Source of the DNA: Acidimicrobiales bacterium
GTDB lineage: Bacteria; Actinomycetota; Acidimicrobiia; Acidimicrobiales; SHLQ01
Length of the DNA stretch: 56,260 nt
NCBI GenBank assembly: GCA_020628865.1
Contig: JAHDEJ010000006.1
Location: 1 to 56,260, forward strand
Reading direction: 5' to 3'
Made by a program: the position numbers and the translations under genes. The notes below the pieces were generated by a model. The model was not told the origin of the DNA, searched no databases, and saw only the letters and a list, made by a program, of their open reading frames with translations. Shown in pieces: positions 53,395 through 56,035 of this stretch (its first letter is position 1; each line of letters starts with the position of its first letter).

Positions 53395-54057
53395 TCAGGT
53401 GGGGAGGGCCCGGTGGATCGCATCGATCATCGCGGACGGTTCGACGTCGATGCCGGTGGCAAGCGCATCGAGTTCGATGCCGATTTGCGGGCGTTCCGCA
53501 TCGTGTACCGCGAGGAGATCGGCGTGCGCGGCCCCATCCCAGCGGCGGAGGACCGCGACCTGGAACCGGGCGTGCGTGCGGGTTCGGCGCTGGGAGATGC
53601 CGACGAGCTTCCGGCCGTCGGTCGTGAGTTCTCCTGCCCCGAGTCCGGCGAAGCAGATACTGGGGGAGTGGACGGTGGTCAGGTGACGGCCGGTGTGCAT
53701 GTGGGTTTCGATGCCGAACTCCCGGAGCGCTGCGGCGCAGGCAACGCCCACCCATTCGAATGCCCGGCCCACGTCGTCGGCCCACAGCGGGTCGTCCCGG
53801 CCGATGATCAGATCGAACCAGACGAGATCGTCGACGGAGACGAGGACGGCACCCCCGCCCGTTCGGCGGCGGGCGACCTCGACGCCGCGCTCGGCGCATC
53901 GGGCCAGGTCGACCGTGGATGCGTCCTGGGAACTGCCGAGCACGAGGGTCCGCCGGTCGTCGAGTGCGGGTATCCACAGTTCGCGACGGTCGGGTTCGAA
54001 GGAGCGGTGGTGGAACGCTTCGACGGATTCGACGAAACGACGACGGCGAAAGCTCAC
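53395..54057 (-). CDS. LplA/BPL-fold lipoate-protein ligase-like protein
   Basis: 220 residues of the biotin/lipoate ligase fold: RRTGGGAVLVSVDDLVWFDLI (substrate loop), SICFAGLGAGELTTDGRKLVGISQRR (with the conserved Lys contacting lipoyl-AMP) and a C-terminal strand-helix. It is shorter than classic LplA (about 340) and lacks its accessory domain, like LipL/LplJ-type or LipM-type proteins. It may transfer lipoyl or octanoyl groups; the acceptor is unknown. Upstream lie 366 bp of control region shared with mraZ. Confidence 0.83.
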   Translation of the reverse strand: MSFRRRRFVESVEAFHHRSFEPDRRELWIPALDDRRTLVLGSSQDASTVDLARCAERGVEVARRRTGGGAVLVSVDDLVWFDLIIGRDDPLWADDVGRAFEWVGVACAAALREFGIETHMHTGRHLTTVHSPSICFAGLGAGELTTDGRKLVGISQRRTRTHARFQVAVLRRWDGAAHADLLAVHDAERPQIGIELDALATGIDVEPSAMIDAIHRALPT

Positions 54058-54121: not shown

Positions 54122-54160
54122 CCCACCACGCCCCACCGCGTCTCCCACCACGCCCCACCG
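54122..54160. repeat. 17-bp direct repeat with clustered TGGGG motifs
   Basis: CCCACCACGCCCCACCG occurs at 54122-54138 and 54144-54160. On the minus strand this gives four TGGG-type motifs, similar to MraZ boxes, between the lplA-like gene and mraZ. The rest of the 366-bp gap (54058-54423) holds an SOS-like box and mraZ promoter elements but no gene that I can support. Confidence 0.5.
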
Positions 54161-54277: not shown

Positions 54278-54312
54278 TCCTAGCGCAGTGTTCGTGGCTT
54301 CGGGGGGTGAAA

Positions 54313-54338
54313 TGGGGGATTTTTGGGGTAATGTGGCA
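54313..54338 (+). promoter_or_regulatory. MraZ operator candidate
   Basis: TGGGG (54313), TGGGG (54324) and TGGCA (54334), spaced 10-11 bp, as in the TGGGN repeats bound by MraZ in other bacteria. The set is 85-110 bp before the mraZ GTG. Confidence 0.5.
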
Positions 54339-54423: not shown

Positions 54424-54849
54424 GTGTTCGTCAACCACTACGAGCATTCGCTGGACTCGAAGAACCGCGTGGTGCTGCCGGCCAAGTTCCGGAATTCGCT
54501 CGGCGATCGGGTGTACCTCGCCCCGCAGGACAATTCCCTGGCCGTGTACTCCGAAGCGGAGTTCCAGAGGGTCACCGAGCGGTTGCTCGCCCTGGTGCAC
54601 TCGGGGGAACTCGATCCGATGACACGACGGGGCTTCGCCGCCAACACGGTGGAGGTCGAACTGGACACGGCCGGGCGGATCACCATTCCCGCCCGATTGC
54701 GCGAGTTCGCCCAGCTGGAGAACGACGTCGTCATCAACGGTGCGCTGACCTACATCGAGATCTGGAGTCGCCCCGCCTTCGAGGCGATGGAGCAGGAACT
54801 CACGGCAGTCGTGCAGGAACAGTTCCGAGCCGGGGGGAAGATCAACTAG
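54424..54849 (+). CDS. mraZ: Transcriptional regulator MraZ
   Basis: 141 residues, two AbrB-like MraZ motifs: HSLDSKNRVVLPAKFRNSLG near the start and ELDTAGRITIPARLREFAQL near 75-95. MraZ rings bind tandem TGGGN repeats and control the division/cell-wall (dcw) cluster. The GTG start is supported by GGAGAGGAGAG just upstream. It is the first gene of the dcw cluster, followed by rsmH and ftsL. Confidence 0.95.
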   Translation: MFVNHYEHSLDSKNRVVLPAKFRNSLGDRVYLAPQDNSLAVYSEAEFQRVTERLLALVHSGELDPMTRRGFAANTVEVELDTAGRITIPARLREFAQLENDVVINGALTYIEIWSRPAFEAMEQELTAVVQEQFRAGGKIN

Positions 54850-54913: not shown

Positions 54914-55037
54914 CTCGTTCATTGACAGTCTCCCGGTTGGCAGATGGAAGGCCCCTACTCCGCCCGCTTGCCATCAGCTCGATCGGGGGAGAAATCCCGA
55001 CGTGCGCCCGCTGACCGGGGGACTGTCAATGACCGAG
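54914..55037 (+). ncRNA. Structured leader between mraZ and rsmH (mraW-motif-like)
   Basis: A 24-bp inverted repeat (54914-54937 with 55014-55037; 22 Watson-Crick pairs, one G-U, one mismatch, extendable by four weaker pairs) encloses about 76 nt. Inside are TGGCA/TGCCA and CGGGG/TCCCG hairpins. The right arm contains the GGGGG ribosome-binding site and AUG of a 22-codon ORF, which would be hidden in the stem. An RNA element called the mraW motif is known upstream of mraW/rsmH in actinobacteria; whether this is a member I cannot test. Confidence 0.65.
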
Positions 55038-55097
55038 ACGACCTGCGAACAGCTGCTCGACCGTCGTTTCCTGCCCGCCACACGTGAACGGTGCTGA
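55029..55097 (+). CDS. 22-residue leader peptide overlapping the rsmH start
   Basis: ORF MTETTCEQLLDRRFLPATRE ends with two further residues and TGA at 55095-55097. Its ATG is preceded by GGGGG with 7-nt spacing. It overlaps the rsmH GTG (55091) in another frame, the classic layout for translational coupling. rsmH itself lacks a good ribosome-binding site. Confidence 0.5.
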   Translation: MTETTCEQLLDRRFLPATRERC

Positions 55098-56035
55098 CCT
55101 TGGCTGACCCTGACCTCGACTTTTTTCATGTCCCGGTCATGCGCGACGAGGTGCTCGACGCATTCGACGAGGCGCCCGCTGGGGCGATCGTGGACGCAAC
55201 GCTCGGCGGCGCCGGGCATGCGCTTGCGCTGCTCGAGCACCGCAGCGACATCGTGCTGCACGGCATCGACCAGGACGCCGTCGCCATGGCCGTCGCCCGC
55301 GAGCGCCTGACCGCGCACGCCGATCGGGTGCACACCCATCCGGTCCGGTTCGACGCCGCTGCGGACGCGCTGGACGATGCCGGTGTCTCCGAGATCTCCG
55401 GATTCCTCATGGATCTGGGCGTCTCCTCGCCGCAGCTCGACCACGCGGACCGTGGATTCAGCTATCGCAACGATGGCCCCCTCGACATGCGCATGGATCG
55501 GACTCGGGCACTCACCGCCGCCGATGTGGTGAATGGCTACGACCTCGGTGAGCTCATCGACGTGCTGCGTTCGTACGGCGATGAGCGCCATGCGCCACGG
55601 ATCGCCCGAGCGATCCTGGCCCACCGGCCGATCTCGGGCACCGCCCAGCTCGCCGACGTGATCCGAGACGCCGTGCCCGCGGCCGCACGCCGGGCGCCCG
55701 GACATCCGGCGAAGCGGAGCTTTCAGGCCATCCGCATCGAAGTCAACGCCGAGCTGTCGATCCTGTCGTCCTCGATCGATGCACTCATCGCCCGACTCGC
55801 CGTTGGTGGCATCGGGCTCGTGCTGACCTACCACAGCGGCGAGGACCGGATCATCAAGGACCGGATGCGGGACGCAATCGACGGAAACGCTCCGGCCGGG
55901 CTCCCGGTCACCACCGACTTCGAGTGGCTCTGGCGCGGTGCGCACACCCCAACCGAGGAAGAGATCGAGCGCAACCCCCGGGCCAAGAGCGCCCGTCTTC
56001 GTGCCATTCGGCGAACGCGGAGGGCCGATGGCTGA
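55091..56035 (+). CDS. rsmH: 16S rRNA (cytosine1402-N4)-methyltransferase RsmH
   Basis: 314 residues. RsmH (MraW) uses SAM to methylate C1402 in 16S rRNA. Motifs: HVPVMRDEVLDAF, SAM loop VDATLGGAGHALALL, GIDQDAVA, GFLMDLGVSSPQLD, RGFSYRNDGPLDMRMD, and KRSFQAIRIEVNAEL near the end. The GTG at 55091 (or the in-frame TTG at 55100) has only a weak ribosome-binding site, consistent with coupling to the leader ORF. The stop overlaps the ftsL start by 8 bp. Confidence 0.95.
   Translation: MLTLADPDLDFFHVPVMRDEVLDAFDEAPAGAIVDATLGGAGHALALLEHRSDIVLHGIDQDAVAMAVARERLTAHADRVHTHPVRFDAAADALDDAGVSEISGFLMDLGVSSPQLDHADRGFSYRNDGPLDMRMDRTRALTAADVVNGYDLGELIDVLRSYGDERHAPRIARAILAHRPISGTAQLADVIRDAVPAAARRAPGHPAKRSFQAIRIEVNAELSILSSSIDALIARLAVGGIGLVLTYHSGEDRIIKDRMRDAIDGNAPAGLPVTTDFEWLWRGAHTPTEEEIERNPRAKSARLRAIRRTRRADG

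What the first reader, a model, noticed from the sequence alone, without database searches (positions are those of the whole stretch)
54914..55097. Long stem that hides the start of a leader peptide coupled to rsmH: a candidate RNA switch of the division cluster
The sequence shows a 24-bp near-perfect inverted repeat (54914-54937 and 55014-55037). Its right arm contains GGGGG and the ATG of a 22-codon ORF whose end overlaps the rsmH GTG, and rsmH lacks a good ribosome-binding site. So opening of the stem would be needed to translate the leader and then rsmH and ftsL. Internal hairpins could hold a ligand or protein site. An mraW RNA motif is known from actinobacteria upstream of this gene; the hidden, coupled leader ORF may be a new mechanistic detail. 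Direction of control is inference.
Basis: partly seen in the sequence, partly recalled or inferred. Interest (0 to 1): 0.85.

Follow-up and report, generated by a model that had tools for sequence, protein, structure and literature searches.

The report
Acidimicrobiia rsmH leader RNA
Just before the first enzyme gene of the cell-division cluster lies a folded RNA, kept across almost the whole bacterial class Acidimicrobiia and absent from the RNA-family catalogue, that in many of these species buries the gene's ribosome-binding site and so probably controls when the gene is translated.

Summary
The inverted repeat is real: 24 of 27 positions complementary, against at most 19 in shuffles. It is the closing stem of a structured RNA that sits between mraZ and rsmH throughout Acidimicrobiia. 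A covariance model built here finds it in 241 of 296 genomes of the class and in no phylum genome outside it. All 140 loci checked have rsmH downstream. In a 96-sequence alignment 46 of 47 pairs show two-sided changes, and G-U versus A-C counts (84:15) put the RNA on the + strand. The element is a long stem P1 with an apical hairpin whose loop (CCCCUACUCCGCCCG) is nearly invariant, plus an optional third hairpin. Rfam has no match, including its mraW family. In 42 of 100 members the start codon buried in P1 is rsmH's own start, behind a buried Shine-Dalgarno. The leader peptide is not conserved: in the window it looks like a decayed rsmH N-terminus. Coupling to rsmH is plausible in the window, not general. 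Best reading: a cis-acting leader that gates rsmH translation, with a trans factor on the loop. That factor may be RsmH itself, since the loop core matches its 16S target around C1402 at 9 of 10 positions; this match is weak (shuffle p 0.05-0.08).

The parts
54424..54849 (+). mraZ
   Evidence: Pfam MraZ PF02381, E 6e-31
54914..55037 (+). the structured leader RNA (P1-P2-P3, three-way junction)
   Evidence: model R1 hit 54914-55039, 128 bits; fold z -6.7; covariation
54914..54941 (+). P1 5' arm
   Evidence: pairs with 55010-55037; all 28 pairs of P1 show two-sided changes in 96 sequences
54943..54975 (+). P2 apical hairpin GAUGGAAG-loop-CUU-G-CCAUC
   Evidence: 7 of 8 pairs with two-sided changes
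54951..54966 (+). near-invariant loop GCCCCUACUCCGCCCG; core ACUCCGCCCG 54957-54966
   Evidence: core positions 93-100% conserved in 100 members except the first A (83%); 18-mer scan of 84,980 genomes: 108 of 119 stretches have rsmH downstream
54977..55005 (+). P3 hairpin (optional; absent in several families)
   Evidence: 11 of 11 pairs with two-sided changes where present; missing in ~92-101-nt members
55010..55037 (+). P1 3' arm, carrying the buried Shine-Dalgarno and start codon
   Evidence: sequence
55017..55021 (+). buried Shine-Dalgarno-like GGGGG
   Evidence: anti-SD duplex <= -5 kcal/mol in 97 of 100 members
55029..55097 (+). 22-codon ORF from the buried ATG; probably a decayed rsmH N-terminus, not a conserved leader peptide
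55091..56035 (+). rsmH (mraW), 16S rRNA C1402 N4-methyltransferase; GTG 55091 or TTG 55100 start
   Evidence: Pfam Methyltransf_5 PF01795, E 1e-95

Best explanation
It is a cis-acting leader RNA of rsmH, a new family confined (as far as searched) to Acidimicrobiia. Shown: the mraZ-rsmH stretch folds, as RNA on the coding strand, into a long stem P1 capped by a hairpin P2 with a nearly invariant C-rich loop and often a second hairpin P3. Shown: in about half of members P1's 3' arm contains the Shine-Dalgarno and start codon of rsmH itself. Inferred: the folded form blocks 30S binding and keeps rsmH translation low, and a trans-acting factor recognising the invariant loop sets the balance between folded and open. 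Inferred for the window: rsmH drifted out of frame with the buried ATG, so initiation there now makes a 22-codon ORF whose end overlaps the rsmH start and can feed it by coupling, or rsmH is started weakly by itself. The likeliest single factor is RsmH (autogenous repression by mimicry of 16S helix 44), but that step is only suggestive.
For: Covariation: 46 of 47 pairs with two-sided changes, 90% of cells paired against 72% in shuffles (0/500) and 36-48% when slid. RNA strand: 84 G-U against 15 A-C cells in P1. Distribution: 241/296 genomes of the class, one place each in those read, none outside it among 246 phylum genomes. Synteny: 40/40 between mraZ and rsmH and 100/100 with rsmH homology downstream. 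Buried start at a fixed offset: 42/100 are direct rsmH starts, with 5 more in frame with a long extension. Stem SD <= -5 kcal/mol in 97/100. Loop invariance and its linkage to rsmH in an unbiased scan of named genomes, 108/119. No terminator-like site.
Against: In 37 of 100 members (19 of 48 GTDB families by majority) P1 has no start codon at that place, and rsmH mostly has its own downstream SD (median 37 nt past the element, 78% <= -5 kcal/mol). There burial of the RBS cannot be the direct mechanism, yet stem and loop persist. About a fifth of class genomes lack a hit. No expression data. P1 is so stable that a default-off state would need an active opener or a kinetic window.
Confidence: 0.65

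Rival explanations
(This is the specific form of the best explanation.)
For: 9/10 match, exactly over the unpaired invariant loop. Sliding the core along the rRNA locus of a relative, the C1402 site is the single best place, and 16S windows over that site score highest. The element always precedes rsmH, and rRNA methylase autoregulation has precedents (ErmC, KsgA; own knowledge).
Against: Shuffling the C-rich loop gives an equal match in 5-8% of cases. A highly constrained U of the loop (99%) departs from 16S, and the G is sometimes A. The human orthologue METTL15 binds the RNA backbone without sequence specificity (PMC10828496). RsmH is held to act on 30S subunits rather than naked RNA (own knowledge).
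Confidence: 0.25
2. RNase III-type processing or mRNA-stability element: the long P1 is cut to separate mraZ from the rsmH-division transcript, and the loop is an accessory protein site.
For: P1 is a 28-bp, mostly complete duplex in all members, including those with no start codon in it.
Against: RNase III needs no invariant apical loop, nor a start codon at one fixed offset in the arm.
Confidence: 0.2
3. One reading: a conserved leader peptide whose translation, hidden in the stem, switches rsmH by coupling.
For: In the window the ORF stop overlaps the rsmH GTG; overlaps also occur in L003, L009 (ATGA) and L066.
Against: The ORF is missing, in frame with rsmH, or of unrelated length and sequence in congeners. 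L005, sister of L066, has a premature stop 23-32 nt before the rsmH start candidates.
Confidence: 0.08
4. DNA-level element: dyad for a DNA-binding protein such as MraZ, an internal promoter, or a mobile inverted repeat.
For: The reverse complement of the loop has two NGGGN blocks ten bases apart in the window, as in MraZ boxes (sequence; box form from own knowledge).
Against: G-U pairs favour RNA on one strand. The block spacing becomes 11 in several families (e.g. CCCCUUACUCCGCCC), and the leading T of TGGG is absent. One place per genome in those read, always rsmH-linked.
Confidence: 0.05

Closest known systems
mraW RNA motif (Rfam RF01746; Weinberg et al. 2010, PMC2864571)
   Same: Lies upstream of mraW/rsmH in Actinobacteria; long GC-rich stem; C-rich apical loop beginning ACU (ACUUCCCCG against ACUCCGCCCG); GGGGAC in the 3' arm.
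   Different: No match at Rfam's cut-off or at E <= 10 in the window, nor at E <= 1 in nine relatives. Its hits here are in other classes (9 of 149 phylum genomes, none in Acidimicrobiia). Single unbranched stem in its model. In the examples read it ends well before the rsmH start.
Autogenous translational repressor leaders (e.g. ribosomal-protein leaders; ErmC, KsgA; own knowledge)
   Same: cis leader of an RNA-binding protein's gene, structure over the ribosome-binding site, possible imitation of the rRNA target.
   Different: No binding shown; rRNA likeness is limited to ten loop bases.
Leader-peptide attenuators
   Same: In the window a short ORF starts in the stem and ends at the next gene's start.
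   Different: ORF not conserved, no terminator.

Membership tests
mraW RNA (RF01746) | scores above Rfam gathering threshold (50 bits) | tested here: not met
   no match in the window at gathering or at E <= 10; none in nine relatives at E <= 1
mraW RNA (RF01746) | located upstream of mraW/rsmH in Actinobacteria | tested here: met
   140 of 140 loci examined
mraW RNA (RF01746) | apical loop ACUUCCCC on one unbranched stem | tested here: not met
   loop is ACUCCGCCCG; most members have a three-way junction
mraW RNA (RF01746) | common ancestry with RF01746 | tested here: inconclusive
   R1 scores RF01746 loci at 20-23 bits, but an unrelated hairpin in the same loci scores 27.7
RBS-occluding translational leader | target gene's SD and start codon inside a conserved helix | tested here: met
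   met in 42-47 of 100 members; in the window only the decayed start is inside
RBS-occluding translational leader | opening the helix changes translation | not testable with these tools
   needs reporter assays
Autogenous leader of RsmH | binding of RsmH to the leader | not testable with these tools
   needs binding assays
Autogenous leader of RsmH | leader imitates the protein's rRNA site | tested here: inconclusive
   9/10 at C1402, best place in the rRNA locus scanned; shuffle p 0.05-0.08
Leader-peptide switch | conserved short ORF | tested here: not met
Riboswitch | small-molecule binding pocket | not testable with these tools
   conservation is concentrated in one single-stranded loop, which suggests protein or RNA rather than a pocket (inference)

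The most novel reading that the evidence does not exclude
RsmH, the near-universal 16S C1402 methyltransferase at the head of the division cluster, represses its own translation by binding a leader hairpin that imitates its 16S helix 44 target, which would tie ribosome maturation to expression of the division operon across a whole bacterial class.
Probability: 0.22. Interest if true: 0.85.

Novelty: new variant of a known kind. Interest (0 to 1): 0.6.

Why it matters
rsmH is nearly universal and heads the division and cell-wall cluster, but how its expression is set is poorly known; the function of the known mraW RNA was still described as unknown in 2017 (PMC5640933). A class-wide leader with a near-invariant loop, and in about half the species rsmH's own start codon locked in its stem, gives a concrete target. 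It also reframes the mraW motif as perhaps one branch of a wider set of rsmH leaders.

Tried and rejected
RF01746 membership: not met. Testing common descent with RF01746 by scoring its loci with R1: uninformative, because any long hairpin scores. Similar loops upstream of rsmH in other classes: the CCGCCCG heptamer appears only in class members and in one other actinobacterium (L185), where it is not in such a structure. Pairing of the loop with 16S rRNA: only 7-mers, expected by chance. A P3-loop/P2-loop contact (GGAG with CUCC) was considered, but P3 is absent from several families. MraZ DNA box in the loop: spacing not kept. The genome's own 16S is missing from the assembly, so 16S came from relatives. 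Papers on this element: none found.

Full report
OBSERVATION. The inverted repeat is present at the stated coordinates and extends to 27 nt at 89%. With G-U pairs the stem runs 54914-54941 / 55010-55037. Shuffled sequence reached at most 19 of 27 matches against 24 observed, and the fold has z = -6.7. The flanking genes are mraZ and rsmH by Pfam.

A CLASS-WIDE RNA FAMILY. I searched relatives by RsmH and read the mraZ-rsmH gaps. The same element appeared in nearly all, with diverged stems and one nearly constant loop. An alignment of 33 with a 47-pair structure gave 37 pairs with two-sided changes, above all 500 shuffles and far above slid partners. A covariance model found it in 241 of 296 genomes of the class (168 of 210 good-quality ones); where a genome shows a second match, those listed are the mirror hit on the other strand or a cut-off contig end. 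In 246 phylum genomes only class members matched. Re-aligning 96 members gave 46 of 47 pairs with two-sided changes, 90.4% of cells paired (72.4% shuffled) and a covariation score of 0.491 (0.196 shuffled). That alignment was fitted to the model and so leans towards it, but one search was made on a MAFFT alignment blind to structure. In P1, 84 cells are G-U and 15 A-C, which places the RNA on the + strand.

CONTEXT. All 40 loci checked sit between mraZ and rsmH, and all 100 elements examined later have RsmH homology downstream; some loci are in both sets. Several of the other 11 are cut off by the stretch's edge and the rest are in unrelated taxa. Record titles of carriers include Ilumatobacteraceae, Microthrixaceae, Candidatus Microthrix, Acidimicrobiaceae and the Sva0996 group. 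The nearest relative of the window, G008, has the contig length of CALBVR010000054.1 (uncultured Acidimicrobiales, L2_Bin_Bin_149_1).

ANATOMY. P1 is about 28 bp. P2 carries the loop GCCCCUACUCCGCCCG, with the core ACUCCGCCCG 93-100% conserved at every position but the first A (83%) across 100 members that otherwise differ widely. P3 is common but absent from families with roughly 92-101-nt elements. No terminator-like site was found, so transcription attenuation by an intrinsic terminator is unlikely.

THE BURIED START. At a fixed place in P1's 3' arm, 63 of 100 members have ATG, GTG or TTG. In 42 this is the rsmH start, in frame and at most 15 codons before the homology, and in 5 more it is in frame with a longer extension. 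An SD-like run precedes it in 97 of 100 (duplex <= -5 kcal/mol). In 37 members there is no start codon there, and rsmH usually has its own SD further down (median 37 nt past the element). So burial of the ribosome-binding site is shown for about half the family and cannot be the whole story for the rest.

THE LEADER ORF. In the window's own family the ORF is not conserved. It is lost in L007, L008 and L024, in frame with rsmH in L004, L010, L011 and L012, and of unrelated length elsewhere. The 98%-identical relative L003 has a 1-nt deletion that moves its stop. In the window the stop overlaps the rsmH GTG, so local coupling is plausible. The simplest reading is that the ORF is the old rsmH start, kept because its bases pair in P1, now out of frame with the gene (inference).

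RELATION TO mraW RNA. RF01746 does not match here, and its members in this sample lie in other classes. Its loop ACUUCCCCG and 3' arm GGGGAC resemble ours, so common origin is possible, but the CM test could not decide. I file it as a new variant of the same kind (actinobacterial rsmH leaders), not as a member of RF01746. One caution from RF01746: in C. glutamicum the mapped rsmH 5' UTR starts at 2,266,932, inside the motif hit 2,267,021-2,266,916 (PMC3890552).

WHAT BINDS IT. Because rsmH is always the next gene, I compared the loop with RsmH's own substrate. ACUCCGCCCG matches 16S ACACCGCCCG (1396-1405, with C1402 in it) at 9 of 10, the best single place in the rRNA locus of a relative. Composition-preserving shuffles of the loop do as well in 5-8% of cases, and the human orthologue binds RNA without base specificity (PMC10828496). 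Autoregulation by mimicry is therefore an open, testable idea at about one in four.

STATUS OF EACH STEP. Shown by computation: structure, strand, distribution, gene linkage, loop invariance, buried rsmH start in about half, absence from Rfam, leader peptide not conserved. Inferred: translational control, direction of control, a trans factor, and its identity.

Noticed in passing
window 54122-54157 (- strand) and about 54308-54335 (+ strand): MraZ-box-like TGGG repeats with 10-base period between the lipoate-ligase-like gene and mraZ (two exact copies of TGGGGCGTGGTGGG), and a TGGGGG..TTGGGG..GTGG series just upstream of mraZ.
   Followed up: partly
L230, L260, L262, L298: Records titled Bifidobacterium breve carry the Acidimicrobiia leader with rsmH downstream; the titles look wrong.
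   Followed up: no
L016, L060, L062, L065: Some class members have lost the element; in L016 rsmH follows mraZ almost directly, so loss goes with a closed gap there.
   Followed up: partly
window 53395-54057 (- strand): Lipoate/biotin protein ligase family gene divergent from mraZ (Pfam LplA-B_cat).
   Followed up: no
L105: Most divergent member: the P1 arms look shifted and lack the usual CAG/CUG, in an AT-richer element.
   Followed up: no
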